Below are positions 429-16,784 of a DNA stretch of 64,000 nt, in pieces. A model generated the notes under the pieces. The model searched no databases. It saw nothing but the letters and a program-made list of their open reading frames with translations, and had not been told where the DNA came from. Every line of letters begins with the position of its first letter. The first letter of the stretch is position 1. The stretch is from Geodermatophilus amargosae (lineage in GTDB: Bacteria; Actinomycetota; Actinomycetes; Mycobacteriales; Geodermatophilaceae), in contig NZ_FPBA01000010.1 in the NCBI RefSeq assembly GCF_900116515.1, positions 1 through 64,000 of the forward strand. The letters run 5' to 3'. The translations under genes and the position numbers were made by a program.

Positions 429-456
429 ATCAGATGTCGTAGTACATCGCGAACTC
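429..456. repeat. attL: 28-bp copy of the glnA 3' end
   Basis: Identical over 28 bp to 15347-15374. On the minus strand it encodes EFAMYYDI and a stop, the last eight codons of glnA. It is the left boundary of the integrated element and the stranded tail left by integration. Flanks diverge immediately to the right (cccc versus gtgc). Confidence 0.88.
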
Positions 457-559
457 CCCCCACGTGATTGGTCAACCGCGACTGTTGGTGGATATGACGC
501 TTGACCTGCGCTTTTGTGTTGGCCAGCCTTGGCTGAGAATGGTCCGAGCTGAGCGTCTT

Positions 560-578
560 GGGGACTGGACGGGGACTG
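560..578 (+). promoter_or_regulatory. Candidate integrase arm-type site (left)
   Basis: GGGGACTGGACGGGGACTG: two GGGGACTG octamers 11 bp apart. The same arrangement in the same orientation occurs at 15282-15300 inside the other end (17 of 19 positions equal). In the circular form the two pairs would flank the 28-bp core, as arm sites of tyrosine recombinases do. Confidence 0.5.
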
Positions 579-722
579 GCGGCAGGTCTCCGAGGATGAC
601 GCGGTGGCGATCGGCTGTCTCGCGGACTGGCTTCCGACCGGCGTCCTCTGCTCGTCCGTCGGCCCACTCTCGGAGTGGGTGACCCGCTTCCCACCCCGTT
701 CAGCCTGCCGGCTGTCTCGGTC

Positions 723-778
723 GCCGGAAGGGCGCTGCGCGTCCCTGCGGAATGGGCCTCCGGCCCACCCTTCCCCCG
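723..778 (+). repeat. 56-bp dispersed repeat, copy 1
   Basis: Matches 1240-1295 at 53 of 56 positions (begins GCCGGAAGGGCGCTGCGCGT). Weaker similarity continues about 35 bases beyond the right end in both copies. Function unknown; it may be an intergenic repeat family or a decayed duplication. Confidence 0.75.
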
Positions 779-1239
779 CCCTGCGACAGCTAGAGGAGCG
801 CCGGTTGTGGGGAAGCAGACAGGGATGGGGACGCGCCTAGTAGTGCTTCGTTAGGACGCTCGGGCGTGGCTGCTGATGCGTTGTCCCGGTAGGTGCGACC
901 GGGATGTTCTGACTAGCACGATCAAGGCAGACTTGTGGCCTGAGCTGCGAAGACACACATTGGCCAATCAGTGCCGAACAGGACCGATCACAAGGTCGTG
1001 TGCCCCAAATGTGCCCCAGCGGAGTCAGACCTCACGAAGGGGCAACGCAGCAACCGGCCGTCAATGCCGTCTCTGACCCAGGCCTTCGGCCTCTTGTCCC
1101 TTGGGTCTCGTCCGTCGGCCCTGGCTGCCAGCCGGATGTGTTGCGCTTCCGGGTGGGCGTGCTGCAGGTTGTCCCGGCACCTGCCCGCGGAGGCGGCACC
1201 CGCCCCCACCTCACGGGAGCGTCTCCGACTGCGCTGGCC

Positions 1240-1295
1240 GCCGGAAGGGCGCTGCGCGTCCCTGCGGGATGAGCCTGCGGCCCACCCTTCCCCCG
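1240..1295 (+). repeat. 56-bp dispersed repeat, copy 2
   Basis: Second copy of the 723-778 repeat, same orientation, three mismatches, about 517 bp away. It lies just before the decayed GH6 gene. Confidence 0.75.
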
Positions 1296-1469
1296 GCTGG
1301 TGCAGCCGGAGGGGAGCTGGTTATGGGAAGCGAGGTGAAGCCTCGGCTGACTTCCAGCGTCCTCCGTGACGCGGCAGGCCCGGCGCCCGCCTCCGGAGAG
1401 CGGGAGGAGGTGGAATGATCATGCTTGGCAGCTGCTGGCTGGCCCCCATCTATCCAGGTCAGTCACCTG

Positions 1470-2492
1470 GGGGCGGTCCAGTCGGAGTGCCCGGCGTCGA
1501 GGTACGTGCGGTCCGACGATTGGCCTCGAGGGCGTCGACCGCGTCCTGCAGCATCCGCACGCGCTGTGCCGGGTCGCCGCACAGGAGCGCCAGCGTGTCG
1601 GGCTCCACGATCACAATCGCGTCCGCGGTACCGATCGCGGCCGCCACCGCCCGGATCCAGCCGGCGTACGCCTCCGGTGAGGGCGCACCCCCCGCCGAGT
1701 ACCCGCCGCAGTCGAGGTCGGGCACGTTGTAGACGACGAAGACCGGGACGCCACCGGCCGCTCCGGCCTCGGCCATCCGCTGCCGGACCGTCGCCGCAAC
1801 GTCACCGCTCCAGTTCCCCAGCCAGGTGGCCGTCGGCACCTTCGCCAGGTCAGCGAGCAGCCTCGCGTCCTCGGGGCTCCTGGCCTGCCACTCGGCCGCC
1901 GCCCGGGCCGCGCCGGTGTTCGTGCCGACGAGGGTGACCCTGGCCAGGGGGTTGCCGGTCGGTGCGCCGTGCGACTGGCCGTCATCGGCCACCGGCACGG
2001 ACGGCGGGGCACCTGCAGCGCCTCGGCCGTCGAGGACGGAGACACCGACGGGGACGGGTCGGTCGTCGGCGCGGGAGAGTCGGTGGGAGTCGTCGGCGTC
2101 GCGGAGTCCCCGGCCGGCCGGGGTGTGCTGCTGCCGGCGTCCGGGCCGGTCGGCGTCGGGGACGGGGCCTCAGCCGATCCGGACGACGCGACCGGCGCCG
2201 CCGCCACGACTTCGACCCCGGTCGCGTCCGGCGGCGCGCTCACCAGCGGGGTGCACGCCATGAGCGTGGGAGCGATCGCCGCCGCGGCCAGTGCGGACCG
2301 CCACGACCGCCGCCCGGTGGGCCGGTGGCTGCCCGCGCCACCGCAGGAGGTCCGCGGCCGTGTCGCCTGGGCGCGAGCCGACGGCGGCTGAGGGAGGCGA
2401 CGGAACGGCAGCTCGAGCGGATCGAGCCGATCGAACGATGAAGAGATCACCGATTGTGACGCATAGAGCATGAGCGAGGAGTAATCAGTCAA
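1470..2492 (-). pseudogene. Decayed GH6 glycosidase (endoglucanase/cellobiohydrolase) lipoprotein
   Basis: The 5' part (about 2310-2010) encodes a hydrophobic leader ending in LMAC, a lipobox, then a Pro/Ser/Thr-rich linker. Near 2010 the frame must shift to continue into a glycoside hydrolase family 6 domain: NPLARVTLVGTN, then VYNVPDLDCGGYSAGG with a candidate catalytic Asp, then IVIVEPDTLALL. Near 1508 a second shift is needed to read YLDAGHSDWTA, a GH6 hallmark, and a third follows near 1480, after which similarity stops. The C-terminal third of the domain is absent. The enzyme would have been a cell-surface beta-1,4-glucanase. It lies downstream of, and in line with, a processive GT2/GT39 operon, suggesting it once trimmed that polysaccharide. 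Multiple shifts make sequencing error unlikely but not excluded. The start is uncertain. Confidence 0.75.
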
Positions 2493-2696
2493 AGTCTTTA
2501 AGTTAGTACATTATGGCCAGCGGCTCACCCCGCCTGTACCGCCGGCCGCTCGATGGGCACCGTCTTCCGCACGGTGGCGGAGCCGGTCCCGGCGCGGTGT
2601 GCGCCCGGACCGGCTCCTCCCGACGCCCTACGCGGCCGGCACGGCGCGGAGTCGGCGCCGTGACGGTTCTCCGCGGCGCACCGCCGCGGGGAGTCC

Positions 2697-4475
2697 TCAC
2701 TCGTCGAGGATGGTGAGGATCGTCTCCTGCGACGTCACGTACTTGGCCGCTAGTTCCGGGACGGACAGGGTGGCCTGGTCCACCTTGATCCCCTCGATCT
2801 GGCCGTTGGTCAGGTCGGTGAACTCGGCACTGGGCGCGGTCAGGAACGCCTCGAGCCGCTGCCGCTCGGCCTCGTCCTCTACTGCCTGGATGCGGGCCTG
2901 CTCCGCCAGGGGCAGCACGCGGCGCACCTCGATGCGCGCGTCCCCCTCGCCCGCGGTCCGGAGCAGCTCGCTGTGGTCGTAGGCCTCGACGACGATCGGG
3001 CCGGCGTTTCGGGCGACGTTGTCGGACCACACGAGGTAGTCGATGCCGAGGTAGTCGCCGCCGAGCTGCTCCATGACCGCTCCGTCGGAGTCGACCTTGT
3101 AGAACCAGACGACGTCCTCGGTCGCCCAGCCGGCGTCCACCAGGTCGTTCCACAGGGTGTTGTCGACCACGATCGTCGCGTCTCGCGGGAGGTCGTCCTC
3201 CACGTAGGCCGCGGTCGCCGACCGGACGTCGTTGGTGTCTGCGGTCCAAGCCGTCGCGTAGTCGTAGCGCCAGTCCGCGAGCGGCACCGTGGCCGCGGCC
3301 AGCGCGGCCAGCATCGACGCAGCGGAGATCACCCGGACCGGGGCGGTCCGCGCCCGCATGAGCCACCGCCACGCCACGTCGAGGAGCCCGGCGAGCGCCA
3401 GGGCGCAGAACGGGAGGACGGCGACGACGTACATCTGCGGGAGGTATCCGGACGGGCGCAGTGCCACCAGGGTCACGACGAGGACCGCGATCCCCACGGG
3501 ACGCAGCCGTCGCACGGCGAGGGTGACCAGCGCCGCTGCGACGCCGCCCACGACCAGCACGCCATCGTCGAAGTGCAGCCACCCGCTTAGGGCGTCGTAT
3601 GCGCCGTCGCTCGGGCCGTCGGGGTCCAGCAGCCAGCCGGAGCCCTCCCGACCGCCGAGCTGAAAGGCCAGGGCGTCCCAGATCGAGACGTGGTCCGGGC
3701 CGGGGAACAGCTCGTCGCGGATGAGCGCGTACAGCAGGTACGTCGAGCCCGAGATCGCCACGACGGCGGAGAAGCCCATGATGGCGAAGGGCCGGGTCGG
3801 GCGGTAGGCGGACTGCCAGAGCGCCACCAGGAGCGCCGGCAGGAACACCAGGACGGTCTCCTTGCTCAGCACCGCGACGCCGAAGCACAGTCCTCCCGCC
3901 ATATGGTGGCCCAGGTGCCGCCTGCGGTCGAGGACCAGGACGAACGCGCCCACCAGCCACGGGAGGGCGATGTTGTCGAGGAAGACCTGGCGGCCCTCGT
4001 AGACCACGAGCGGGTTGAGTGCCCACAGCAGCATGGCCGCCAGCGCCCAGCCCCGTGCCATCCCCAGGCGCTTCGCGAGCACGTACAACAGCAGTGCTGT
4101 GACCAGCGTGTAGGCCACCATGAGGATCCGGCCGGCCAGCAGGTCGGAGTTGACGTCGTCAGCCAGCAACGCCTCCGGCAGCCAGGAGAACAGGGCCATC
4201 TGCAGCCAGCCGGCCGGCGGGTGGTCGTACCAGTAGGTGTAGGGCGCGAGGGAGCCCATGTTCAGGACCGACCACGCCTGGGAGTAGTAGGTCCCCTCGT
4301 CGTCGAAGTACCGCGGCCAGCCGGCCAGGTTGAGGGAGTGGGCGACGCCGATGACGATCAGCGCGAGGCCAACCCGGAGTCGCTCGCTACCTCGCCGTGG
4401 CGCCGCGTGCGCGGGCCCGGCCGGCCGTGCCTCGTCTGGTTCGACGACGTCGATGTGCTCGAGAACCGTGCTCAC
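2697..4475 (-). CDS. GT39/GT83-type membrane glycosyltransferase (PMT_2/ArnT-like), 592 aa
   Basis: A multi-spanning membrane protein. After a short cytoplasmic start comes the first helix (about residues 34-52), then an acidic YFDDEG motif (about 57-61) in the first outer loop and YDHPPAGW (83-90), both typical of polyprenyl-phosphate-sugar dependent transferases (protein mannosyltransferase, ArnT, GT83). Around ten further hydrophobic segments follow, then a soluble C-terminal region of about 170 residues, probably extracytoplasmic. It would transfer a sugar from a lipid-phosphate donor outside the membrane. The start GTG overlaps the stop of the upstream GT2 gene by four bases (GTGA), so the two are translationally coupled. 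The acceptor is unknown. Last gene of the three-gene cargo operon. Confidence 0.82.
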   Translation of the reverse strand: MSTVLEHIDVVEPDEARPAGPAHAAPRRGSERLRVGLALIVIGVAHSLNLAGWPRYFDDEGTYYSQAWSVLNMGSLAPYTYWYDHPPAGWLQMALFSWLPEALLADDVNSDLLAGRILMVAYTLVTALLLYVLAKRLGMARGWALAAMLLWALNPLVVYEGRQVFLDNIALPWLVGAFVLVLDRRRHLGHHMAGGLCFGVAVLSKETVLVFLPALLVALWQSAYRPTRPFAIMGFSAVVAISGSTYLLYALIRDELFPGPDHVSIWDALAFQLGGREGSGWLLDPDGPSDGAYDALSGWLHFDDGVLVVGGVAAALVTLAVRRLRPVGIAVLVVTLVALRPSGYLPQMYVVAVLPFCALALAGLLDVAWRWLMRARTAPVRVISAASMLAALAAATVPLADWRYDYATAWTADTNDVRSATAAYVEDDLPRDATIVVDNTLWNDLVDAGWATEDVVWFYKVDSDGAVMEQLGGDYLGIDYLVWSDNVARNAGPIVVEAYDHSELLRTAGEGDARIEVRRVLPLAEQARIQAVEDEAERQRLEAFLTAPSAEFTDLTNGQIEGIKVDQATLSVPELAAKYVTSQETILTILDE

Positions 4476-5773
4476 GCGGCCTTCTCCTGCTGTCCGACCA
4501 GCGTCAGCTGGGGCGTGATGTGGGAGCCGGCATGGGCTGTCTTCTCCCAGGCGAAGTCGCCGGTGAAGTACTTCCAGGCTGCCCGCAGGACCGCGACAGC
4601 CAGGAGCAGTTGGTAGAAGGGCAGGGACAGCACCAGGCGGAGGTAGTCCCGCGGCCGCACGTCGAGGTGCATCTCCCGGCTCCACTCGCGCAGGATGAGC
4701 ATCTCGAAGCCGAGCATGGTCAGCGTCGGCGCCAGCGGCAGGAAGGTGATCAGCACCACCAGCGGCGGCACGTCGACGAGGAACCCGGTGAGGACGGCCA
4801 GCGGCAGGGCGATTCCCGAAAAGGCGACCGCGTGCTGTTGCACCAGCGTCCACCAGGCGTGGAAGCGCTGCGACCGCGTCGGCAGCTTCTTCCACTCACC
4901 CTTGGCGAGCACCTGCATGAAGCCCAGGGCCCAGCGCGTGCGCTGCTTGATCAGCTGCGGGATGCGCTCCGGGGTCTCCTCCTGCGTAGCGAGCCGCGAG
5001 TCGTAGCCGACCACGATCTTCTTGCCGAGGCAGGACAGCCGCACGCCGATCTCGCAGTCCTCGGCCAGGCAGTCGCCGTCCCAGCCGCCGACTTCCTCCA
5101 GCAGCGCCCGCTTCATGAACACGGTGTTGCCGCCGAGGGGGATGAAGCCGGACAGGGCGTGACCGTGCAGCCGTGACCGGAACCAGATCCGGTACTCCAT
5201 GCAGTTGCGGAGGCTGAACCAGGAGTCGCGGTAGTTCATCAGGTGCACGGCGCCCTGGACCACGTCGGCGTCGGTTCCCTGGAAGGTCGCGTCGACGTGC
5301 CGGAGCAGTCCCGGCTGGGTGAGGGACTCCGCGTCGATGATGCCGACGATCTCCTTGGTGCAGTCCAGCAGCGTGCTGTTCAACTGCCGCGGCTTGTTCT
5401 TGACCGCGTCGTGGTTGATCGAGACCTTGACCCGGGTCGGCCAGCGCCGGGCCAGCGCCTGGGCGATCTCCACCGTGGAGAGGCCGTCGGTCATCGGCTT
5501 GGCGTCGTCGTGGCCGACCGACAGGATGACCTCCAGATCCGGGTGGTCCTGGGCCAGCAGGCGCTGGACCGTCGCCCGCATGACCGGCTCGGTCTCCTCG
5601 CGGCACGGCACGATGAGGCTGAAGGAGTACCTCGCCCGGACCGGGACCTCGAAACCCACCGACCGGAACGAACGGGGGGAGGACCAGGCGTGCATCTGCC
5701 ACCACAGGGTGGCGCCCGCGATCACCAGCAGGGCCACGGCGACGAGGGTGAGAACGGCGGAGACGAACACCAC
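4472..5773 (-). CDS. Processive family-2 glycosyltransferase (cellulose/hyaluronan-synthase-like), 433 aa
   Basis: An N-terminal membrane helix (residues 1-26) precedes a GT-A domain with SLIVPCREE (52-60), DAES (147-150), AEDCEIG (237-243) and QRTRW (277-281), then two or three C-terminal helices. The QxxRW motif after the D, DxD and ED residues marks processive membrane polysaccharide synthases such as BcsA-type enzymes, which polymerise and extrude beta-linked chains. No PilZ domain is present, so no c-di-GMP control is evident. The chosen GTG start lies 2 bases past the stop of the upstream gene; a second GTG three bases on is equally possible. Polymer identity is not determined by sequence; the neighbouring GH6 remnant hints at a beta-glucan. 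Confidence 0.85.
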   Translation of the reverse strand: MVFVSAVLTLVAVALLVIAGATLWWQMHAWSSPRSFRSVGFEVPVRARYSFSLIVPCREETEPVMRATVQRLLAQDHPDLEVILSVGHDDAKPMTDGLSTVEIAQALARRWPTRVKVSINHDAVKNKPRQLNSTLLDCTKEIVGIIDAESLTQPGLLRHVDATFQGTDADVVQGAVHLMNYRDSWFSLRNCMEYRIWFRSRLHGHALSGFIPLGGNTVFMKRALLEEVGGWDGDCLAEDCEIGVRLSCLGKKIVVGYDSRLATQEETPERIPQLIKQRTRWALGFMQVLAKGEWKKLPTRSQRFHAWWTLVQQHAVAFSGIALPLAVLTGFLVDVPPLVVLITFLPLAPTLTMLGFEMLILREWSREMHLDVRPRDYLRLVLSLPFYQLLLAVAVLRAAWKYFTGDFAWEKTAHAGSHITPQLTLVGQQEKAA

Positions 5774-5775
5774 GG

Positions 5776-7044
5776 TCAGACCTCCACGGTCGTGCGCAGG
5801 GGGCGGGCGGACGGCTCGGACCGCGGGGACCGGTACACCACACGGGAGGCGAAGAGGAACCGCGCCAAGAAGGCGACGGCGAGGGTGATCCCCTGCGCGA
5901 GCACCGCCCAGACGTGCACGGTCTCGACGAGCAGGACCAACAACGGCAGGCGAATCAGCGCCTCGACGCTGTTGAACGCCAGGTGGTGCGCCAACCGGCG
6001 TGGCCAGCGGTAGGTGCCGTCTCGCAGGTCGCTGAAGACGAACCGTTCCTGGAGGACGAAGTTGTGCAGCATCGAGACCTCGGCGGCCACGATCGCGGCG
6101 AGGACGTAGCCGACCTCCAGCGGCCCGTTCACCAGCAGCGCCATGGCCCCGAGGTTGACCAGCGTGCCGAGCGCTCCCACCGCGGCGAACCGGCTCATCC
6201 GGCCCATTCGCAGGTTGACCATCTGGTGGACGAATGCCACCCCGTTCCGCCATGAGGCCTTGCTCTCACCGGCCAGTCGCTCGGCGAAGGTGAAAGGCAG
6301 CTCCCGGACCCGCAGGTCATGCCGCGCCAGGATCTCGAGCAGGATCTTGAAGCCGCGCGGACGTAGACGTGACATCTCGATCGCCGACCGGCGGAAGCAG
6401 AAGAACCCGGTCATGGGATCCGTGCAGACCCGTCCCACCCGGCGCGGGAAGCAGGCCTGGACGATGAGCGTGCTGGAACGTGACACCCAGCGCCGGTAGG
6501 TGCTGGCCAGGCCGGAAGGCCGGCCGTCCCCCGCGTAGCGCGAGGCCACGGACAGGTCCCCGTGGCCGACGGCATCACGCAGGGCGGGCACCAGCTCGGG
6601 CGGGTGCTGGAGGTCGCCGTCCATGACGACGACGAAGTCGCTGTCGGAGGCGAGGATGCCGGCACTCACCGCGCCGGACAGGCCGCCGACCCGCTCGGCC
6701 GGCTCCCGGTGGATCATCCGTACCGGGAGCTCGGCCCAGGCGGCCGCCCGGGAGACCTGCTCGGGAGTGTCGTCGGTGCTGTCGTCGACGACGACGATCT
6801 CGGCGCTCCGCCCGCGCAGGGCGGCACAGAGGCGGGTGACCAGGGAGACGACGTTGGTACCCTCGTTGAACGTCGGGACGACGACGGTCACGTCGAGTCG
6901 GGAACCGGCCCGCGCGTCCTCGTCGTCGGCGGGCGGTGCCCAGATGGTCGCAGTCGCGCCTGCGATGTGGTTCCCGGTCATGACGACCGGCCGATCGAGG
7001 ATCGACGACACCCCGGAGGGGTCGCGATCGGATCGCAAGTGCAT
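5776..7044 (-). CDS. Polyprenyl-phosphate sugar synthase (DPM1-like GT2) fused to GtrA, 422 aa
   Basis: Residues 50-260 are a non-processive GT2 domain: VTVVVPTFNEG, VVVDDSTDD (D87/D88) and MDGDLQHPPE (DxD at 142-144), the signature of dolichol/polyprenyl-phosphate mannose or glucose synthases. From about 262 the protein has four membrane helices of the GtrA type (RFAAVGALGTLVNLG), thought to move or present the lipid-linked sugar across the membrane. It would make the donor used by the GT39-type enzyme encoded last in this operon. ATG at 7044 is preceded by a GAGGA ribosome site, favoured over an upstream in-frame start. First gene of the cargo operon; no clear promoter box was picked. Confidence 0.85.
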   Translation of the reverse strand: MHLRSDRDPSGVSSILDRPVVMTGNHIAGATATIWAPPADDEDARAGSRLDVTVVVPTFNEGTNVVSLVTRLCAALRGRSAEIVVVDDSTDDTPEQVSRAAAWAELPVRMIHREPAERVGGLSGAVSAGILASDSDFVVVMDGDLQHPPELVPALRDAVGHGDLSVASRYAGDGRPSGLASTYRRWVSRSSTLIVQACFPRRVGRVCTDPMTGFFCFRRSAIEMSRLRPRGFKILLEILARHDLRVRELPFTFAERLAGESKASWRNGVAFVHQMVNLRMGRMSRFAAVGALGTLVNLGAMALLVNGPLEVGYVLAAIVAAEVSMLHNFVLQERFVFSDLRDGTYRWPRRLAHHLAFNSVEALIRLPLLVLLVETVHVWAVLAQGITLAVAFLARFLFASRVVYRSPRSEPSARPLRTTVEV

Positions 7045-7386
7045 GGAAGTCCTCGTCTGGAGAAGACGCACGGCGCAGGTCGACGCCTAGGAGGCAGCCG
7101 GTGGGCGCGCGAACGTCGGGCCTGCGGGCGGAGATGGAGCAGGGCTGTCGGCGGGAGAGCGGCGACAGCAGCGCTGCTGTGGACCTCCGCCGAGGTGGCG
7201 GCTCTCCTAGGTGTACGCGCCGATCGCAGGATCGCAGTCTGTCAATTCGTGATAATCCGACTGCTTTCGGTAAGGCTTGATCCACTGTGTGTCTGCAGCG
7301 GGTATGAGCATGGCCGGCGGGTCGACCGAGCTTGCGAGCCGTCGCTGTCCGGACCCCTATAGGCACATGCTGTGTAATGGCATCAA

Positions 7387-7701
7387 GTGCTACACCTCAC
7401 GCGGATTGCATCTATCCCCGAGGACACGGCTGCGAGCTCATCGACTTGCGCGACCCGCAGGCTCCCGGCTGGGCGACCGCAGCGACGGGTCACCGGCGGC
7501 CGCGTCCTCTACTCCCAGCAGACCGGCACCAGCTCTGCTCTGCTGGACGAGGCCGCGCTGACTGCCCTGTACGAGCAGGCGTTCACCACCTGCAGCAGGG
7601 TTGAGCCGACGGCCGACGACACAGCTTCGATGACGACCTGTCGTCACATCTCGGCCCGCCACCTGAATTGCCAGGCCGGGCTGCTCGGCTTCCTGGAGTG
7701 A
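7387..7701 (+). CDS. Possible small hypothetical protein
   Basis: A 104-residue frame. The C-terminal part (GRVLYSQQTGTSSALLDEA, then LTALYEQAFTTCSR) looks protein-like, while the N-terminal third looks like random GC-rich translation, and a second frame in the first half (ELIDLRDPQAPGW) is equally plausible. This may be a frameshifted remnant. No homologue recognised. The 340 bases between the glycosyltransferase operon and this frame show nothing else. Confidence 0.25.
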   Translation: MLHLTRIASIPEDTAASSSTCATRRLPAGRPQRRVTGGRVLYSQQTGTSSALLDEAALTALYEQAFTTCSRVEPTADDTASMTTCRHISARHLNCQAGLLGFLE

Positions 7702-7712
7702 TGACAGGACGG

Positions 7713-7737
7713 AGCCCCGGCCCCGTGGCCCGGGGCT
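7713..7737. terminator. Hairpin terminator candidate
   Basis: AGCCCCGG pairs with CCGGGGCT over a 9-nt spacer. It lies just after the possible small gene ending at 7701 and in the gap facing the convergent secreted-protein gene. Confidence 0.45.
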
Positions 7738-7746
7738 TCGCCCGGT

Positions 7747-7781
7747 CGTCGGGGTCGGCGGTGAGGCCGTCGACCCCGACG
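7747..7781 (-). terminator. Hairpin downstream of the secreted-protein gene
   Basis: An 11-bp arm CGTCGGGGTCG (7747-7757) pairs with 7771-7781 over a 13-nt loop that can pair further. It lies 40 nt past the stop of the minus-strand gene at 7822, a normal position for its terminator. Confidence 0.5.
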
Positions 7782-7821
7782 GGTGTCAGCGGGCGGAGCC
7801 GCTCTCGCGGCTGCTGTCGCT

Positions 7822-8463
7822 TCAGCCGTTGGTCCACTTGATCGTGATGTCGTCCTTGACCCGCTCGTCGCGGCAGCCGTTGGCGTCGGCATCGGCGCAC
7901 CAGACGACGTACTGGGTGCCCGCCGTGGTGTTGTTGTTGAGCCGGGCGTGGAACTCGAGGTCACCCGCGGCGCCGGTCATCTGGTAGCTGGACTGGAAGC
8001 ACAGGTCGTTGCGGCCGTCACGGTTGGTGTCGCTGAGCCGGGAGTACTCCGGTCCTGCGCCGTCGGGGTCGGGGCAGGCGCTGATGAACCCGACGCCGGA
8101 GCTCTGGAAGGAGGCGGGCCCGTTGACCTTCTGGCCCTGCCGGTCGAGGAAGCAGGCGTCGTTGTGCACGTTGCGGTTCGCGGTGCCGGGGTCGCTGAGC
8201 CGCTGCCGGTCGTACTGGTCGGGGTTGGCGCAGGAGGAGCCGCGGTTGACGTCGGGGTTCTCCGTCGTCGCTCCGGTGTCGCGGTTGATGTAGGAGGCGG
8301 CGCGGACGCCGTCGCGGCCGTCGCCACGGTCGTAGCTGGCGCCGTAGCTGCCCCCACTGCTGGCGCTGCCTCCCTCGCCGTGGGCGAGGGCGAGGGGGGT
8401 ACCCAGGCCCATGGCGGTCACGCTCAGGGTGGCGATGGCTGCGGTGCGGACGGCTGCTCGCAT
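7822..8463 (-). CDS. Secreted cysteine-containing protein of unknown function, 213 aa
   Basis: A classical signal peptide (MRAAVRTAAIATLSV, cleavage after ALALA, about residue 27) leads a hydrophilic mature protein rich in Asn, Asp, Gly and Ser. The sequence contains several loosely similar stretches with one or two Cys each: GSSCANPDQYDRQRLSD, LSDTNRDGRNDLCF and CADADANGCRDE. The Asp/Asn loops resemble calcium-binding loops (DxNxDG-like), but no known domain is certain. Six Cys in the mature part could form disulfides outside the cell. ATG at 8463 has an AGGAG site 7 nt upstream. It lies alone between the glycosyltransferase cargo and the relaxase. Confidence 0.75.
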   Translation of the reverse strand: MRAAVRTAAIATLSVTAMGLGTPLALAHGEGGSASSGGSYGASYDRGDGRDGVRAASYINRDTGATTENPDVNRGSSCANPDQYDRQRLSDPGTANRNVHNDACFLDRQGQKVNGPASFQSSGVGFISACPDPDGAGPEYSRLSDTNRDGRNDLCFQSSYQMTGAAGDLEFHARLNNNTTAGTQYVVWCADADANGCRDERVKDDITIKWTNG

Positions 8464-9045: not shown

Positions 9046-9222
9046 CTGAGCTGAGCTCACGTTGTCAACACGAGCAGCCAGGCAGTCCGCATCCTGCATC
9101 GAATCAGTGATTGCCAACAATGACCAATGAGATAGCCCTACAACGACTGCCGCTCGTGATATTCAACCCCTGTCAATAACCCCCAGGACTTTGCTGAACA
9201 ACGGCACGCATGCTACCAATGG

Positions 9223-9259
9223 CGGTAGTCCGGGCCCCGCTTCGCGGGGCCCACTGCCG
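9223..9259. other. Long imperfect hairpin before the relaxase; oriT candidate
   Basis: GGGCCCCGC (9232-9240), TTC loop, then GCGGGGCCC (9244-9252): a perfect 9-bp stem. It is extended by CGGTAGT (9223-9229) against ACTGCCG (9253-9259) after a CC bulge, with one G-T pair. It sits 44 nt before the MobF gene in unusually AT-rich DNA (about 9050-9230). Relaxases of this type often have their origin of transfer just upstream, with an inverted repeat near the nick. It could instead be a terminator; no nick site can be assigned. Confidence 0.4.
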
Positions 9260-9302
9260 TTTCTGGGGGTGACGTGTTGGTCGTTGTTGGCAGGTATTGA
9301 AA

Positions 9303-12300
9303 ATGCGCGGCGGAATGAAGATCTACGCTGGCGCCCCTGCCGCGGCCCGCCACTACGTAGAGGCCGACCGGGGCCGGGCCGATGACTACTACCTGACCGA
9401 GGGCACCGGGCTCGCCCGCCGCTACACCGCCACAGACGGCAGGGTGGCCGAGCTCGCGCCGCTCGCCGGGGACGGCTACCAGGAGTGGGTCGCCGGCACC
9501 GATCCCGATACCGGTGAGCTACGCGGTTGGCTGCGCACCGATGACCGGGCGGTGCGGTTCGTCGAGGTGATCGTCAACGGGCCGAAGTCCTGGTCGCTGG
9601 CCGCCGCCCTGCACCCGGACATCGCCGTCGTCTACGACGCCGCCCAGGACAGCGCCGCGGTCCAGATCATCGGCTGGCTCGCGCAGCACGCCACCACCCG
9701 GGTCGGCCCGCGCGGCGGGCAGGTGCAGGTACCGGTCGAGCGCCTGGAGGCGGTGACCATGCGGCACCACACCTCCCGGGCTGGGGATCCGCACCGGCAC
9801 CTGCACCTGCAGATCAACGCGCGGGTGTTCGCCGCCGGCCGGTGGCGGGGGCTGCACACCGTCGGGGTGCGCGACTTCCTTGCCGCGATCAACGGCATCG
9901 GCCACGCGGCAGTGGCCACCGATCCGCAGTTCCGGGCCGCGCTGGCCGCGCACGGGTACACGATGGACGCAACCGCAGATGTACCGGAGCTGGCCGCCTA
10001 CGCTGCGGCGTTCAGCGCCCGCGCGGCCCAGATCGGCCGCAATATCGACCGTTACGAGCGGCAGTGGGCGGCCGCGCACCCCGGCCAGACGCCGGGTCCG
10101 GGGCTGCGGCGGGCCTGGGACGCGCGGGCGTGGGCCGAGGGCCGCCCGGACAAGGTCACCTCACGACCGGGCGCCGACTTGACCGTCCGCTGGGTGGGCG
10201 AGTTGGCCGCCCTGGGCTACCGCGACCCCGGGCGACCGGTCGACCTGACCCCGGCTCCGGTTGGCGGGCTGGACCGAAATGACGCGGTCGAGCGCGTGCT
10301 GGCCCGGTTGGCCGCCGCCCGCTCGGCGTGGAACGCCGCTGACGTCCGCGGGGAGGTCGAGCAGCTGCTCGCCGCCGCCGGCGTTGTCGCCGACGCCGGC
10401 GTGCGCGCCGAGCTGGCCGAGGACCTCACCGCCCGGGCCATGGCCCGGTGCGTACCGCTGCTGGACCGGGACGGCGCCGGCGTTCCCGAGCACATCCGGG
10501 CCTGGACCTCCCAGCCGGTGCTCGATGTCGAGGCCGACCTGACCGACCGGTTGGCCGCCCGCAGCACCCCGGCACCAGCCGACAAGCGGCGAGACCTGGA
10601 GCCGGAACTGCCTGACGCGGTGCGCGGACGGCTGGATGCCGGGCAGGCGGCGGCGGTCACCGCACTGGCCGGGAACCGGCCGCTGGTGGTGCTCGAGGGG
10701 GCGGCCGGGGCGGGCAAGACCACCACCCTGGCCGCCACCCGGACGCTGCTGCACGCGAACGGCCGCGGCCTGGTGGTCGTCACCCCCACACTCAAGGCGG
10801 CCAAGGTCGCCTCCCTCGAGGTCGGCGCGCACACCGGGTCGGCGGCGGGGCTGGCCTATCAGCACGGCTGGCGCTGGAGCGATCACGGCGCCTGGACCCG
10901 ACTGGCCCTCGGCGAGGTCGATCCGGTCACCGGCGTGCCCTACGCCGGCCCGCGCGAGGCGGCGCGCCTGGGCGCAGGAGACCTGCTGGTGGTGGACGAG
11001 GCCGGGATGCTGGACCAGGACACCGCCCGCGCGCTGCTGACCGTCGCCGACGAGACCGGCGCCCGGCTGGCGCTGCTGGGCGACCGGCACCAGCTGGCCG
11101 CAGTCGGCCGCGGCGGCGTGCTGGACCTCGCCGTGCGTCAGGTCGACCCGGCAGCCCACCTGGTGCTCGACGGGGTTCATCGCTTCGTCCGCACCGACGA
11201 CGCCGGCCGGGCGACCCCGGACACGGAGTACGCCGAGCTGACCCTGGCCATGCGCACCGGGGAGGATTCGAGCGCGGTGTTCGACGCCCTGGTTGCCCGC
11301 GGCCAGATCCGCGTGCACGCCGACCCGCCGGCGCTGCGGGAGGCGCTGGCCACAACCGCCGCCGCCCATCACCGCGACGGCGAGCAAGTGGCCTTGGTGG
11401 TCGACACCCGCGAGCAGGCCACCGAGCTCAGCGACGCCATCCGCGAGCGGCTGGTCGCCGACGGCCGCGTCGGCGACACCCGGGTCGCGGTCACCGGGGC
11501 CGGGCAGCGGATCGGTGCCGGGGACCAGATCGCCACCCGGCGCAACGACCGCGACCTCGGCGTGGCCAACCGCGACACTTGGACCGTCGTCGCCGTCGGC
11601 TGCGACGGGGCTCTGGCCGTCGTCCCGACCGAGGTCGCCCCAAGAAATGCTCTCCCTGCCCCTGTCACCACGACCGGCACCGCTCCTGGTGCTGTCACCC
11701 CACCGGAGGCGGGGCAGCGGGTGCTGCCCGCCGGCTACGTCAGCTCGCACGTCGAGCTGGCCTACGCCTCCACCGCACACGGCGCGCAGGGTGACACCGT
11801 GTCGACCGGACACCTGGTGGTGGGTGAGCACACCGGCGCGGCGGCCGCCTATGTCGGGATGACCCGCGGCCGCACCGCCAACACCGCCCACCTGGTCGCT
11901 GCCGACCTGACCGAGGCGCGGGAGCAGTGGATCGCCGTGTGCGCCCGGGACCGGGCCGACCTCGGACCCGCCCACGCCGCCGACCTGGCTGCCGCCGAGG
12001 CCGCCCGATACGCCGCACCCCGCCCGTTCGAGCAGGTGCTGGCCGACCTGCAGCAGGTCTGGACGGTCGAGCAGCGCAGCCTGGACCGGCTGGCCGTCCT
12101 GCAGCCCTGGTGCGAGGACCTGCGCCGGGCCGTGGCGCTTCAGGCCGCCCACGGTGGCGAACTGACCCGGCTGGAGGACCACGCCCGCCGGGCAACCCAC
12201 ATTGCTGAGCAGGCGACGCAGCGGGTGCAGGCCGCCGACGCCGTCCTCGCCGAGGAGGCCAAGCGGATCCGCGAGGGCCTGCTCACCGCCTGGGACGACG

Positions 12301-12632
12301 ACCGCGGCGCCGCCCGCGCCGCGGCGAAGGTGGTGCTCGACGGGCCCGGCTGGTGGAGGCTCAAGCGCGCACGGGTCGCCCGGGCCGAGGAGCAGTTGGC
12401 CGGCTGGGCCGACCGGTGGCGCCTCCACCTGCCCGACCTGCCCACGAATCCCGAGCAGCTGGCCCGGGTGGCCGACCGGTTCGACGACTGGCCGGCGCTG
12501 TCCCGAGCATTCAATGCCACCGCCCACCACGCCGCCGAACGAGACCACCCCGACCGCGCCGGGCTGCACGCCGCCGCCGAGGCCGCCGTCCGGGCCGGCG
12601 AACAGGCCCAAGCCGCCCTGACCAAGGCTTAA
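9303..12632 (+). CDS. MobF-family (TrwC/TraI-like) conjugative relaxase-helicase, truncated, 1109 aa
   Basis: The relaxase domain has paired tyrosines (DDYY, about 27-30) and the metal-binding three-histidine motif HRHLHLQ (164-170). From about residue 450 a RecD-like helicase follows: Walker A EGAAGAGKTTT (about 466), Walker B VVDEAGMLD, GDRHQLAAVGRGG, and a late motif YASTAHGAQGDTV. The enzyme would nick oriT, stay bound to the strand and unwind it. ATG at 9303 has GGCAGG about 8 nt upstream; ATG 9315 (MKIYAG) and TTG 9297 are alternatives. An in-frame TAA ends the gene at 12632, yet the same frame stays open and protein-like to 12980. No T4SS or coupling genes are nearby. Confidence 0.88.
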   Translation: MRGGMKIYAGAPAAARHYVEADRGRADDYYLTEGTGLARRYTATDGRVAELAPLAGDGYQEWVAGTDPDTGELRGWLRTDDRAVRFVEVIVNGPKSWSLAAALHPDIAVVYDAAQDSAAVQIIGWLAQHATTRVGPRGGQVQVPVERLEAVTMRHHTSRAGDPHRHLHLQINARVFAAGRWRGLHTVGVRDFLAAINGIGHAAVATDPQFRAALAAHGYTMDATADVPELAAYAAAFSARAAQIGRNIDRYERQWAAAHPGQTPGPGLRRAWDARAWAEGRPDKVTSRPGADLTVRWVGELAALGYRDPGRPVDLTPAPVGGLDRNDAVERVLARLAAARSAWNAADVRGEVEQLLAAAGVVADAGVRAELAEDLTARAMARCVPLLDRDGAGVPEHIRAWTSQPVLDVEADLTDRLAARSTPAPADKRRDLEPELPDAVRGRLDAGQAAAVTALAGNRPLVVLEGAAGAGKTTTLAATRTLLHANGRGLVVVTPTLKAAKVASLEVGAHTGSAAGLAYQHGWRWSDHGAWTRLALGEVDPVTGVPYAGPREAARLGAGDLLVVDEAGMLDQDTARALLTVADETGARLALLGDRHQLAAVGRGGVLDLAVRQVDPAAHLVLDGVHRFVRTDDAGRATPDTEYAELTLAMRTGEDSSAVFDALVARGQIRVHADPPALREALATTAAAHHRDGEQVALVVDTREQATELSDAIRERLVADGRVGDTRVAVTGAGQRIGAGDQIATRRNDRDLGVANRDTWTVVAVGCDGALAVVPTEVAPRNALPAPVTTTGTAPGAVTPPEAGQRVLPAGYVSSHVELAYASTAHGAQGDTVSTGHLVVGEHTGAAAAYVGMTRGRTANTAHLVAADLTEAREQWIAVCARDRADLGPAHAADLAAAEAARYAAPRPFEQVLADLQQVWTVEQRSLDRLAVLQPWCEDLRRAVALQAAHGGELTRLEDHARRATHIAEQATQRVQAADAVLAEEAKRIREGLLTAWDDDRGAARAAAKVVLDGPGWWRLKRARVARAEEQLAGWADRWRLHLPDLPTNPEQLARVADRFDDWPALSRAFNATAHHAAERDHPDRAGLHAAAEAAVRAGEQAQAALTKA

Positions 12633-12980
12633 CGCCAGCAGAGGGAGCGGCTGACCGCGCTCGGACCGCTCGCCTTCACATCCGACCCGACCGGGTCGCT
12701 GGCCCACTTCGAGGGCTACGCCGCCACCGCTCGGGACGCGCTGGCCGACGCACAGACGCGCATCACCAATCTGCGGGCCGAGCCGGCTCTCCTCGGTCAG
12801 TCGCCCGACCTACTCACCGCAGCCAAAGACGCCTGGTGTACCCGGTACGCCGCCGAGCATCAGCAGCGCCCAGCCGTGACGCCGAACCCGGCCGGCTACC
12901 CGGCGGGTATCCCGCGGCCCGGGGCCGAGCGCTATGGGCCACGGAGCGCGCGGGATGTCACCCCGAGCGTGGGGCGGTGA
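12633..12980 (+). pseudogene. Separated C-terminal tail of the relaxase
   Basis: Directly after the TAA at 12630-12632 the relaxase frame continues for 115 sense codons (RQQRERLTALGPLAFTS, HFEGYAATARDALADAQ, then a Pro/Arg-rich end) to TGA at 12978-12980. Codon use matches the relaxase and no other stop occurs. The simplest reading is one nonsense mutation (for example GAA to TAA). The tail has no own start site with a ribosome site and probably is not made unless the stop is read through. Confidence 0.65.
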
Positions 12981-13297
12981 GCCGGGCTGTTCGCCACCGG
13001 ACCGCTGTCAGCCAGGTGAGCGGGCACTGCAGGAGAACTGAAGCACCACCGCAGGCCCGCCGACCTCGGGCAGGTCACCGCCGCAGCGAGCCTCCAGGAC
13101 GCCCTCACCGGCGCCGGTCTCGGCGCCGAGCGGTGACCTCAAGCGCTCCCGTCCCGGCGACGCTCGGAGGGTGTCAACAGGAGGAAAACAGGAGCTCGAC
13201 TGAAGAACTTGGCTGTGGGCTGTCAGCAACGACCACGAAACGGCGCCTTCTAGGGCTGGGCAGCCGCCCCCATCCGTCGAGCCTCCGGAGACAAGCC
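12981..13297. other. Intergenic region before the integration-control operon
   Basis: 317 bases without a gene. A short open run (about 13030-13137, reading QVTAAASLQDALTGAGLGAE in part) looks like an eroded C-terminal fragment without a start. AT-richer sequence around 13180-13250 may carry the promoter for the HTH gene. Nothing else seen. Confidence 0.45.
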
Positions 13298-13519
13298 ATG
13301 ACCGACCCCACCCCCGGCCTTGAGCACCCCGCCGAGCTGCTCACCATCGGCGAAGCCGCTCAGCTGCTGCGCGCCCCGGTCGCCACACTGCGGTACTGGC
13401 GCCACCTGGGCACCGGTCCGCACTCCTTCCGGCTCGGCCGCCGCGTCGTCTACCGCCGGGACGACCTGCACGCCTGGATCGACGCCGAGCGCCGGCAGAC
13501 CGCTACCGACCACCCTTGA
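13298..13519 (+). CDS. Small HTH (MerR/excisionase-like) DNA-binding protein, 73 aa
   Basis: LLTIGEAAQLLRAPVATLRYW followed by GRRVVYRRDDLHAWID is the HTH_17 fold of excisionases and small regulators: a helix-turn-helix then a short beta wing. In integrative elements such a protein beside the integrase usually directs excision or represses the int operon. The ATG start has GGAG about 9 nt upstream. Its stop overlaps the TTG start of the next gene (TTGA), so it is coupled to the toxin-like gene. It may be the element's Xis; a transcriptional regulator is the alternative. Confidence 0.78.
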   Translation: MTDPTPGLEHPAELLTIGEAAQLLRAPVATLRYWRHLGTGPHSFRLGRRVVYRRDDLHAWIDAERRQTATDHP

Positions 13520-13806
13520 CCGAGCCAGTTGTGTCACACAATACTGAGTCCTTAGAGATCCGGTTCACCCAGTCGGCGCGCAAGCACCGCATCGGCCGGG
13601 CCTCCGCCCGGTACGTCCTGGCCACCGCCGAACCGACCGCCGTCACTACGACCAGCGGTGCCGACGCCTGGCTGTACGTGGGACCCGACGAACGGGGGCG
13701 GGAACTGGAGATCATCGCCCTCGAGGTGCACCCGGCCGACGGCCGGCAGCCCTACCTGCTGGTCATCCACGTCATGCCGACCCAGCTCCGAGGAGACCGC
13801 TCATGA
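13516..13806 (+). CDS. Toxin-like protein of a type II toxin-antitoxin pair, 96 aa
   Basis: The core IRFTQSARKHRIGRASARY, then DAWLYVGPDERGRELEIIAL and LLVIHVMPTQLR, has the beta-rich pattern of small BrnT/RelE-type toxins: an RxHxIG-like start and a final VIHVMP strand. No catalytic assignment is made. Its stop overlaps the ATG of the ribbon-helix-helix gene (ATGA), the tight coupling typical of toxin-antitoxin pairs, here with the toxin first. TTG at 13516 is chosen because it overlaps the preceding stop; GTG at 13531 is an alternative. It could instead be an uncharacterised partner of the RHH protein. Confidence 0.6.
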   Translation: MTEPVVSHNTESLEIRFTQSARKHRIGRASARYVLATAEPTAVTTTSGADAWLYVGPDERGRELEIIALEVHPADGRQPYLLVIHVMPTQLRGDRS

Positions 13807-14126
13807 ACGACGAGCACCGGCCCGCCGTCACTCCTGACTCGCCGATCGGCCCGGACGTCGACCTCGACGCCGAGGACGTCCGGCTGGCCGACGGGACCCG
13901 GCTGACCGAGCAGCGCGCCGCCGAGATCGTCGACGAAGTCCGCCGCCGCGGCGGCCGGCCCTCCCTGACCGGAGAGGCGGCCCCTTCTCCGCGGATCGTC
14001 TTCCGCGTCACCCCCGCCGTCCGCGACCGCGCCGCCGAGATCGCCGCCCGCGAGGGCAAGACCATCTCCCAGCTCGCCCGGGAGGCACTCGAGGCGCGAG
14101 TCGCAACCGAACCGCACGCCACCTGA
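13803..14126 (+). CDS. Ribbon-helix-helix (CopG-like) antitoxin/regulator, 107 aa
   Basis: The C-terminal half, PRIVFRVTPAVRDRAAEIAA then EGKTISQLAREALEARV, is a ribbon-helix-helix DNA-binding domain: one strand followed by two helices. The N-terminal half (RLTEQRAAEIVDEVRRRGGR) is charged and would wrap the toxin. Such proteins bind their partner and repress the operon. The start ATG overlaps the toxin stop. The integrase follows after 48 bases, so autoregulation may also affect integrase expression; that link is inference. Confidence 0.68.
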   Translation: MNDEHRPAVTPDSPIGPDVDLDAEDVRLADGTRLTEQRAAEIVDEVRRRGGRPSLTGEAAPSPRIVFRVTPAVRDRAAEIAAREGKTISQLAREALEARVATEPHAT

Positions 14127-14174
14127 CGGAGCTCGACAACCGCCCCGCCCTTGTGCCGGAGATCGGACAAGCTC

Positions 14175-15341
14175 GTGACCTTTCGCAGCATCCAGGACCG
14201 GTGGTACGTCACCGACCCTGCCACGGGGAAGCGCATCCCGAGCGCCCGGCACGGGGAGGGGATGCGCTACCGCGCGCGCTACAAGGACACCGCCGGCAAC
14301 GAGGTCACCCGAGCGTTCTCGGACAAGGAGAAGTCCAAGGCGCAACGGTGGCTCGACGAGGTCACGACCAGTCAGGTGACCGGCACCTACGTCGATCCGA
14401 AGACCGCCCGGACGACGGTCGCCGAGTGGTGCGAGACGTGGACGGCCGGCTACGCCACCCGGCGTCCGAGCACCGTGCGGCAGGCGCAGGTGCACCTCGC
14501 CCAGATCACCGCCGCGTTCGGCTCGCTGCCGCTCTCGGCCGTTCGACCGTCAGCGATCCGCTCGTGGACGGTCAAGCTCAAGGCCGACGGCCTGGCCGAC
14601 AGTTACGTCTACGCCCTGCACTCCAGGCTCTCGCAGGTCATGAGCGACGCCGTGCACGACGGGTTGCTGGCGCGCAACCCGTGCTCCCGCCGCACCTCGC
14701 CCGGAGCCGGTGGCCAGCGCCCGTACGTCGCCACGACCGAACAGGTCTGGGCGCTGCACGACACGGTCGCCGAGCACCTGCGCCCGGCGATCCTGCTCGG
14801 TGCGTTCGTCGGGCTTCGGACCGCCGAGGTGGTGGGGCTGCGGGTCGCGGACGTCGACTTCATGCGCGGCGTCGTCCGGCCGGTGGAGCAGGGCAACGGG
14901 GAGCCGCTGAAGAGCGAGACGTCCTGTACGGCTCTGCCCATCCCGCAGGAGCTGGCCGCGGTGCTGTCGGCTGCGGTGGCTCGGTGGGGCGGGGACCACG
15001 TCGTCACCGATGGCACCGGCCGGCAGACCTCGACGTGGGCCATCGAGCGGGCGATCCGATCGGCTCGGCCGAAGGTCGCCGGGCTGCCCGCTGCGTTCCG
15101 CTTCCACGATCTGAGGCACTACCTGGCCAGCCTGCTCATCGGCAGCGGCCCCGACGTCAAGGTCGTCCAGCACCGCCTCCGGCACGGCTCGGCCAAGACG
15201 ACGCTCGACACCTACGGGCACCTGTGGCCCGACAGCGACGAGTCCGCACGGGCGGCCGTCGGTGCTGTGCTCGCCGCTCGTGGGGACTGGTTGGGGACTG
15301 AGCGGGCTGACCTGCAGCAAAACCGCAGGTCAGCCCGCTAG
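14175..15341 (+). CDS. Tyrosine recombinase/integrase of the element, 388 aa
   Basis: N-terminal arm-binding region (1-75), SAM-like core-binding domain (about 80-165), then a catalytic domain with R215 (GLRTAEVVGL), K246, H311-x-x-R314 (HDLRHY), H337 (RLRHGSA) and nucleophile Y347 (TYGHLWP). It would join the element's att site to the glnA 3' end and, with an Xis, reverse it. GTG 14175 is chosen because the protein then starts VTFRSIQDRWYV, the usual start for actinobacterial integrases; TTG 14151 is possible. The 3' end holds a candidate arm site (15282-15300) and a terminator hairpin covering the last codons. The gene faces glnA tail to tail, with 6 bp between stops. Confidence 0.92.
   Translation: MTFRSIQDRWYVTDPATGKRIPSARHGEGMRYRARYKDTAGNEVTRAFSDKEKSKAQRWLDEVTTSQVTGTYVDPKTARTTVAEWCETWTAGYATRRPSTVRQAQVHLAQITAAFGSLPLSAVRPSAIRSWTVKLKADGLADSYVYALHSRLSQVMSDAVHDGLLARNPCSRRTSPGAGGQRPYVATTEQVWALHDTVAEHLRPAILLGAFVGLRTAEVVGLRVADVDFMRGVVRPVEQGNGEPLKSETSCTALPIPQELAAVLSAAVARWGGDHVVTDGTGRQTSTWAIERAIRSARPKVAGLPAAFRFHDLRHYLASLLIGSGPDVKVVQHRLRHGSAKTTLDTYGHLWPDSDESARAAVGAVLAARGDWLGTERADLQQNRRSAR
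15282..15300 (+). promoter_or_regulatory. Candidate integrase arm-type site (right)
   Basis: GGGGACTGGTTGGGGACTG: two GGGGACTG octamers with 11-bp period, inside the end of the integrase gene and 46 bp from the right core repeat. It matches 560-578 in sequence, period and orientation. Confidence 0.5.
15301..15339. terminator. Bidirectional hairpin at the int/glnA junction
   Basis: Perfect 15-bp stem (15301-15315 with 15325-15339), 9-nt loop. It covers the last integrase codons and lies 8 nt past the glnA stop, exactly the distance of the displaced hairpin at 388-421. Both stems contain GACCTG/CAGGTC. It gives glnA a replacement terminator supplied by the element. Confidence 0.7.
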
Positions 15342-15347
15342 TCGACA

Positions 15348-16784
<1,437 letters not shown>

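What the first reader, a model, noticed from the sequence alone, without database searches (positions are those of the whole stretch)
429..15374. Integrative element that uses the glnA 3' end as attachment site
A 28-bp perfect direct repeat 14.9 kb apart equals the last eight glnA codons plus stop, and a complete tyrosine integrase lies beside one copy. Most actinobacterial elements use tRNA genes; a core nitrogen-assimilation protein gene as target is unusual and gives the element a site present in nearly every actinobacterium. The protein is rebuilt exactly.
Basis: partly seen in the sequence, partly recalled or inferred. Interest (0 to 1): 0.82.

Follow-up and report, generated by a model that had tools for sequence, protein, structure and literature searches.

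The report
Mobile element inserted at glnA end
A 14.9-kb mobile DNA element sits exactly at the end of the glutamine-synthetase gene and rebuilds that end, and its integrase belongs to a widespread actinobacterial family that usually chooses this same spot.

Summary
A 28-bp perfect repeat (429-456, 15347-15374), the last eight glnA codons plus stop and one base, brackets an element with tyrosine integrase, Xis-like HTH protein and MobF relaxase. The only two arm-type paired sites in the window lie just inside its ends. In a sister genus the native glnA hairpin touches glnA in empty genomes and follows the distal repeat in filled ones. Integrases at least 50% identical lie within 3 kb of a glnA end in 24 of 31 cases, those below 50% in 0 of 106. 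In a class sample 7 of 8 lie beside glnA. Seven loci outside the family repeat their host's own glnA end. Correction: the left flank (349-428) is the tail of a second glnA-type integrase cut by an IS, so this is a tandem site. Against: one cargo gene has homologues 7-9 kb behind glnA in three genomes without integrase. The module also sits on small elements with phage capsid genes. Gene-end insertion is known; nine paper searches showed no glnA target. Excision and transfer are untested.

The parts
1..348 (-). IS end with the 5' part of a transposase ORF (IS5-type by recall), cut by the contig start; it truncates the neighbouring element
   Evidence: Minus frame open from about 320 down to 1; Pfam gave no family for this stretch; the name is recalled
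349..428 (+). Tail and hairpin of a second ('type B') glnA-type integrase, remnant of a tandem neighbour
   Evidence: 349-427 is 95% identical to L097:9857-9935, between the type-B integrase and glnA in genome G006; 351-427 is 91% identical to own contig C10
429..456 (+). Distal attachment repeat (28 bp, glnA 3' end copy)
457..15346 (.). Body of the integrative element
   Evidence: Bounded by the two repeats; paired same-strand repeats also in 13 other family genomes, integrase hit in 12 of those 13
560..578 (+). Left paired arm-type site GGGGACTGGACGGGGACTG
   Evidence: One of only two matches in the window, 0.00 expected by chance
1459..1998 (-). Cargo: truncated GH6 glycosidase fragment
   Evidence: Pfam Glyco_hydro_6, profile 5-151 of 305
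2697..4895 (-). Cargo: PMT-type membrane glycosyltransferase
   Evidence: Pfam PMT_2 4e-08
4472..6253 (-). Cargo: family-2 glycosyltransferase; start uncertain, the listed ORF overlaps the next gene
   Evidence: Pfam Glyco_tranf_2_3 6e-41 at residues 211-443
5776..7071 (-). Cargo: GT2 with GtrA domain
   Evidence: Pfam Glycos_transf_2 and GtrA_DPMS_TM
7822..8514 (-). Cargo: 230-aa protein of unknown family
   Evidence: No Pfam or NCBIfam hit; homologues in 6 of 26 genus genomes including this one
9297..12632 (+). MobF/TrwC relaxase-helicase
   Evidence: Pfam TrwC 2.6e-47 and AAA_30; NCBIfam MobF 119.4 bits, cut-off 100
13298..13519 (+). Xis-like small HTH protein
   Evidence: Pfam HTH_17 8.7e-13; NCBIfam excisionase domain 26.3 bits, below its cut-off of 28.8; ATG at 13298
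13516..13806 (+). 96-aa ORF of an overlapping pair, possibly toxin-antitoxin
   Evidence: No family hit; the pair is found in 3 of 13 other family elements
13803..14126 (+). 107-aa ORF, possible antitoxin
   Evidence: Only NF048017 (RelB-like) at E 0.042, far below cut-off
14151..15341 (+). Tyrosine integrase of the glnA-associated clade
   Evidence: Pfam Phage_integrase 5.1e-17; tree clade 100/100
15282..15300 (+). Right paired arm-type site GGGGACTGGTTGGGGACTG
15301..15339 (.). Hairpin at the integrase 3' end, between the convergent integrase and glnA; possible replacement terminator for glnA
   Evidence: AGCGGGCTGACCTGC..GCAGGTCAGCCCGCT; 80 bases after the glnA stop fold at -44.7 kcal/mol, z -4.5 against 100 single-letter shuffles
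15347..15374 (+). glnA-proximal attachment repeat, forming the glnA 3' end
15348..16784 (-). glnA, intact, 478 codons

Best explanation
A site-specific integrative, probably mobilizable, element. Its tyrosine integrase recombines an attP that contains a copy of the glnA 3' end with the chromosomal glnA 3' end. The incoming copy rebuilds the last codons and stop, the element's own sequence (here with a hairpin) now follows the gene, and the host's original end and terminator are pushed to the far side. Integrase with the Xis-like protein should reverse this, and the MobF relaxase should start single-strand transfer through a helper's secretion channel. In this genome the element lies in tandem with the remnant of a second element whose integrase is of the same type. 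Shown by sequence: boundaries, intact gene end, empty and filled sites in relatives, tandem remnant, target choice of the integrase family. Inferred: excision, direction, transfer and terminator function.
For: Repeat and integrase. Paired arm-type sites only at the two ends. Second same-strand att copy on the glnA contig in 13 other family genomes, 2.4-19.1 kb apart. G041, G027 and G039 carry a GCGGCCCCCGACCTG hairpin right after glnA; G031, G048, G026, G040 and G034 carry the same or a related hairpin right after the distal repeat. G009 against empty G011: the region downstream of glnA resumes after the insert. Integrase identity at least 50%: 24 of 31 within 3 kb of a glnA end; below 50%: 0 of 106. 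Of 393 class genomes, 8 integrases outside the family: 7 beside glnA; one of the 7 was already among the loci, so 6 of 7 fresh cases. Seven loci outside the family carry a 20-28 bp repeat of their own glnA end. Junctions reading integrase - glnA end - arm site, without glnA, in L180 and L066, as expected of attP or of a tandem junction.
Against: No circular junction or transfer data. No T4SS, TraB or Rep family among the proteins scanned, though not every ORF was scanned. The left chromosomal side is missing because the contig starts inside the IS; the region homologous to G011's downstream DNA lies on contig C47, with no att or integrase in the 20 kb fetched. The int-att-arm junctions could be tandem elements rather than circles. 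Three of 41 rows in the integrase clade lack glnA in the fetched stretch, and in 33 of 42 glnA loci no second repeat was seen in the stretch held. A homologue of one cargo gene lies 7-9 kb behind glnA in three genomes without integrase there. A strong hairpin behind glnA was seen in only 6 of 18 other loci.
Confidence: 0.92

Rival explanations
1. The site holds a composite: at least two elements of the same specificity stacked at glnA, with 457-15346 as the inner one and the left neighbour reduced to a remnant. Any mobility may be that of the whole array.
For: Left flank 349-427 is 95% identical to the tail of a type-B glnA integrase in G006 and 91% to own contig C10. C10 holds a degraded integrase, the same 28-bp repeat and a 77% match to window 351-789. 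C54 holds further integrase fragments and a relaxase remnant. G021 shows a type-B tail beyond its distal repeat.
Against: Not exclusive of the best explanation, which includes it for the left side. C10 and C54 are not linked to the window contig (the 300-bp contig ends compared share no 21-mer).
Confidence: 0.8
2. The element is a fixed, immobile remnant: integrated once, now only inherited.
For: The GH6 gene is truncated. Of 26 genus genomes 14 have an integrase or fragment at glnA, and about half of these are short fragments.
Against: Intact integrase, relaxase and Xis-like ORFs, perfect repeats and both arm sites; other genus members hold different sequence or none there.
Confidence: 0.25
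3. The repeat arose by duplication of the glnA tail without an integrase, and the genes between are native neighbours of glnA.
For: A homologue of the 230-aa cargo protein lies 7-9 kb downstream of glnA in G001, G008 and G011.
Against: That gene alone matches in G011, in the other orientation, and is less similar (73%) than copies elsewhere (82-89%); the rest of the element has no match in five relatives without an intact glnA-type integrase there. Native hairpins are displaced exactly at the distal repeat in relatives.
Confidence: 0.01

Closest known systems
Integrative and mobilizable elements and genomic islands that use the 3' end of a protein gene (SGI1 at trmE, dusA islands; PMC8409611, title and abstract start seen in listing)
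   Same: Integrase-driven insertion at the 3' end of a protein gene; mobilizable island
   Different: Target is glnA; actinobacterial host; MobF relaxase; glycosyltransferase cargo
Actinomycete ICEs (AICEs; PMC3218068 and PMC9513070, passages read)
   Same: Actinobacterial host, integrase with Xis-type protein, accretion of several elements at one site, some protein-gene targets
   Different: AICEs are defined by TraB and Rep functions, not found here; PMC3218068 reports tRNA genes for the vast majority of AICEs with tyrosine integrases, the pSLS subfamily excepted
Capsid-encoding phage satellites (cf-PICIs and the Streptomyces satellites of PMC10690885, passages read)
   Same: Two glnA-bounded elements of 9-10 kb (G031, L047) carry a major head protein; L047 also a primase-helicase
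   Different: The window element has a relaxase and no phage gene was recognised; the two satellites in that paper lack primases, and glnA has no occurrence in its main text

Membership tests
Site-specific integrative element with tyrosine integrase | Tyrosine recombinase next to a boundary | tested here: met
   Phage_integrase 5.1e-17; ORF ends 5 bp before the repeat
Site-specific integrative element with tyrosine integrase | Direct repeats matching the target at both ends | tested here: met
Site-specific integrative element with tyrosine integrase | Empty target in relatives | tested here: met
Site-specific integrative element with tyrosine integrase | Excision as a circle | not testable with these tools
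   Only indirect: int-att-arm junctions in L180 and L066
Integrative and mobilizable element (IME) | Integrase plus relaxase | tested here: met
Integrative and mobilizable element (IME) | No conjugation machinery of its own | tested here: inconclusive
   None among the 10 proteins scanned; not every ORF scanned
Integrative and mobilizable element (IME) | Mobilization by a helper | not testable with these tools
   Needs mating
AICE | TraB (FtsK-like) translocase and Rep initiator | tested here: inconclusive
   Neither among the 10 proteins scanned with Pfam; not every ORF scanned
Conjugative ICE | Type IV secretion genes | tested here: inconclusive
   None among the 10 proteins scanned; not every ORF scanned
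Capsid-encoding phage satellite (for L047 and G031, not the window) | Own capsid and packaging genes, dependence on a helper | tested here: inconclusive
   Major head protein in both; primase-helicase and a weak tape-measure match in L047; terminase, portal and helper not shown

The most novel reading that the evidence does not exclude
One old integrase-attP module specialised for the glnA 3' end is passed between unlike vehicles, MobF-mobilizable islands and capsid-encoding phage-satellite-like elements, across at least nine actinobacterial families. The glnA end thereby becomes a class-wide docking site where unrelated elements stack, decay and repeatedly replace the sequence behind a central nitrogen gene.
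Probability: 0.45. Interest if true: 0.65.

Novelty: new variant of a known kind. Interest (0 to 1): 0.52.

Why it matters
glnA is highly conserved, so an integrase that reads its last codons may find a site in many actinobacteria. The integrase with its attP is therefore a candidate for broad-host integration vectors. It also makes a question testable: whether swapping the sequence behind glnA changes nitrogen assimilation. The hotspot offers natural series of empty, single, tandem and decayed states, and shows one targeting module on relaxase-type and on capsid-gene-type elements.

Tried and rejected
Chance repeat: rejected. Duplication of the glnA tail without recombination: rejected by empty and filled sites. 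tRNA target: no tRNA found in the window. Known phage or plasmid integrase: best-ranked named phage relative about 30% identical, best-ranked plasmid relative 32%. Joining the window to the native downstream region in its own genome: failed; the homologous DNA is on contig C47, with no att or integrase in its first 20 kb. Search for another cargo gene (the PMT-type protein) in the genus failed twice for technical reasons, so only the 230-aa protein was searched genome-wide; all five cargo proteins were compared with 88 fetched loci, the one hit at E 1e-10 being the 230-aa protein in L099. My first two glnA translations used a wrong frame; one search repeats the work in the right frame.

Literature: nine answered searches looked for glnA or glutamine synthetase, or for actinobacterial elements, with integrase and att terms; two searches listed only 20 of 77 and 20 of 56 papers. 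No listed title or abstract start described glnA as a target. Term searches inside PMC3218068, PMC12884075, PMC9513070 and PMC10023795 found neither glnA nor glutamine, PMC8190616 no glnA and one unrelated glutamine, PMC10690885 neither. In PMC11755657, PMC6071183, PMC10872708, PMC8270828 and PMC7325909 the mentions were metabolic, phylogenetic or a reference title. One search looked for actinobacterial satellites. The supplementary site table of PMC9513070 could not be read, so glnA may be listed there.
Full report
OBSERVATION. The 28-bp sequence occurs exactly twice in the 64-kb window, at 429-456 and 15347-15374, and shuffled sequence gives none. Read on the minus strand it is the end of glnA, EFAMYYDI plus stop, with one further base. 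glnA is intact, 478 codons, 16784 to 15348. The integrase ORF 14151-15341 runs toward it and is a clear tyrosine recombinase; by eye it keeps the catalytic R, K, H-x-x-R, H and Y (recalled motif, no tool). The window is the first 64 kb of contig C56. Two genomes of its genus, G009 and G013, match named contigs by length, Geodermatophilus obscurus and Geodermatophilus ruber.

ANATOMY. Between the repeats, left to right: a truncated GH6 fragment, three glycosyltransferase-type genes on the minus strand, a 230-aa protein without family, a MobF/TrwC relaxase-helicase, a small Xis-like HTH protein, two short overlapping ORFs and the integrase. The pattern GGGGACTGNNNGGGGACTG has two matches in the whole window, at 560-578 and 15282-15300, with 0.00 expected. 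They lie 103 bp and 46 bp inside the repeats, as arm-type integrase sites would. Nine sequences were scanned with a looser form: the window, L059, L058 and L140 have a pair near both ends, L103, L047 and L180 show one, L055 and L181 none. Integrase and glnA converge on a hairpin (z -4.5 against single-letter shuffles); of 18 other glnA-adjacent stretches 6 were strong (z below -3), so a strong hairpin is not general.

EMPTY AND FILLED SITES. In a sister genus of 23 genomes I searched with the distal flank of G031. In G041, G027 and G039 glnA is followed directly by a GCGGCCCCCGACCTG hairpin. In G031, G048, G026, G040 and G034 the integrase end follows glnA, and the same or a related hairpin stands directly after the distal repeat, up to 19 kb away. 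In the window's own genus, DNA downstream of glnA in G011 is collinear with G009 only beyond a 13-kb element, a second repeat, about 0.7 kb of further sequence and a decayed third repeat with 6 mismatches. Of 26 genomes there, 14 have an integrase or fragment within 1.5 kb of glnA and 12 have none; two of the stretches (G023, and one of two copies in G021) were shorter than 1.5 kb.

TARGET SPECIFICITY. From the search of 112 family genomes (at most 16 candidates scored per genome) I copied 137 integrase matches and the glnA ends located in 102 genomes. Of 31 matches at 50% identity or more, 22 lie within 150 bp and 24 within 3 kb of a glnA end. Of 106 below 50% none lies within 3 kb; the closest is 45 kb away. 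The 7 exceptions are four fragments on contigs C54 and C10 of the window's own genome, and one each in G095 (beside an att copy), G052 and G104. A pattern-based scan of 84,980 species genomes returned 52 loci: 42 hold glnA, 37 of them with the integrase match ending within 300 bp of it, five farther or without an integrase match at that threshold; 10 hold no glnA, of which 4 are distant relatives at 33-40%. Named families with an integrase within 300 bp of glnA are Geodermatophilaceae, Sporichthyaceae, Streptosporangiaceae, Micromonosporaceae, Promicromonosporaceae, Dietziaceae, Demequinaceae, Pseudonocardiaceae and Streptomycetaceae; a Nocardioidaceae member lies at 1.15 kb. A tree of 52 integrases puts the 38 rows that I labelled glnA in one clade of 41 (100/100); the label needs 4 changes against 12.5 in shuffles, and the bootstrap had not settled. 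The three unlabelled rows are L061, which by eye has a glnA-end core followed by other DNA, L064, which converges on nucS, and a decayed copy on C54. Of 393 genomes drawn evenly from the class, 8 outside the family have such an integrase; 7 have glnA directly behind it, one (G214) does not. One of the 7 (L188) is identical to L067 of the earlier scan, so 6 of 7 cases were fresh. The repeat follows the host's own codons: 25 bp in Micromonospora, 26 and 22 bp in two Streptomyces, 24 in Demequina, 20 in Prauserella, 28 in Sphaerisporangium, 22 in Nonomuraea. Of 42 loci tested 33 showed no second copy in the stretch held, which for longer elements is uninformative.

RESULT AGAINST. The 230-aa cargo protein has homologues in 6 of 26 genus genomes including this one. 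In G001, G008 and G011, which have no integrase within 1.5 kb of glnA, the homologue (73%) lies 7-9 kb downstream of glnA. In G011 only this gene matches the element, in the other orientation relative to glnA, and copies elsewhere are closer (89% in G003, 86% on own C28, 82% in G009). The rest of the element had no match in L091, L093, L095, L099 or L107. I read this as a mobile or variable gene, but capture of native DNA is not excluded.

TANDEM STATE. The 79 bp left of the distal repeat are 95% identical to the stretch between a related 'type-B' integrase and glnA in G006. An IS has cut this neighbour at about 349. Contig C10 repeats the same junction with a decayed integrase, and C54 holds further integrase and relaxase remnants. 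G021 shows a type-B tail beyond its distal repeat too. So the glnA end is an accretion site. G032 has a 17-kb insert at the same place with a different tyrosine integrase and a distal copy with 6 mismatches, which suggests independent use of the site.

VEHICLES. Of 13 other family elements compared, 12 have the integrase, 11 an Xis-like hit, 7 a MobF hit (2 partial) and 3 the ORF96/ORF107 pair. G031 (9.1 kb) and Micromonospora L047 (10.1 kb, 25-bp repeats) instead carry a major head protein. L047 also has a primase-helicase and a weak tape-measure match; L057 has the helicase, L058 a tape-measure protein. These look like phage satellites or small prophage remnants. In two viral contigs the integrase is followed by a glnA-end copy and then non-glnA DNA (L180, L181); in L180 an arm site follows, as attP would look.

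MECHANISM. Shown: boundaries, intact gene end, displaced native hairpin in relatives, specificity, stacking. Inferred: integrase-mediated exchange within the last glnA codons, Xis-assisted excision, relaxase-led transfer through a helper, hairpin acting as terminator. The crossover base is not resolved.

KNOWN AND NEW. Insertion into the 3' end of a protein gene is known, and accretion is described for AICEs (PMC9513070, passages and section 12 read). PMC3218068 reports tRNA targets for the vast majority of AICEs with tyrosine integrases (passages). I found no mention of glnA as a target in the searches listed under Tried and rejected; subscription papers and supplementary tables were not covered. 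On checking, my confidence went from 0.93 to 0.92 because of the cargo-gene result.

Noticed in passing
L174 (G032:C1:1477500-1497400), 16172-17779 -: A 17-kb insert at the glnA end with a different tyrosine integrase (Phage_integrase 1.2e-06), so a second integrase lineage may use the site.
   Followed up: partly
L064:9971-11793: In Leucobacter an integrase of the glnA clade converges on the 3' end of nucS (Pfam NucS); possible target switch, no repeat of 14 bp or more found in the stretch held.
   Followed up: partly
L186 (G214): The one class-sample integrase not beside glnA converges on another coding 3' end, ending DDFNMSTVSQAS; it resembles a TldD/PmbA protein by eye, not tested.
   Followed up: no
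L047:1056-11200 and L140:4620-13765: Small glnA-bounded elements with a phage major head protein; possible actinobacterial phage satellites.
   Followed up: partly
L180:5001-6240, L181:5001-6300, L066:391-1100: Integrase followed by a glnA-end copy and then non-glnA sequence (with an arm-type site in L180 and L066), as in attP or a tandem junction.
   Followed up: partly
L087 (G000:C10) 5201-6700 and L139 (G000:C54) 218-1525 and 13738-17916: Further decayed glnA-type integrases and a relaxase remnant in the same genome, not linked to the window contig.
   Followed up: partly
window 7822-8514; L099:17105-17749: Homologues of the 230-aa cargo protein lie 7-9 kb behind glnA in G001, G008 and G011 although no glnA-type integrase was found there; unexplained coincidence or captured native gene.
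   Followed up: partly
window 13516-14126: Overlapping 96- and 107-aa ORFs between xis and integrase, found in three relatives; could be a toxin-antitoxin pair.
   Followed up: no
window 708-778 and 1225-1295: A 71-bp direct repeat, 87% identical, inside the left end; with a GTGCCCCAAATGTGCCCC motif near 1000 it may mark an older element end.
   Followed up: no
G087:C1 1890936 and 1921071: Two same-strand glnA-end copies 30 kb apart, with an integrase-tail match beside glnA; not analysed further.
   Followed up: no
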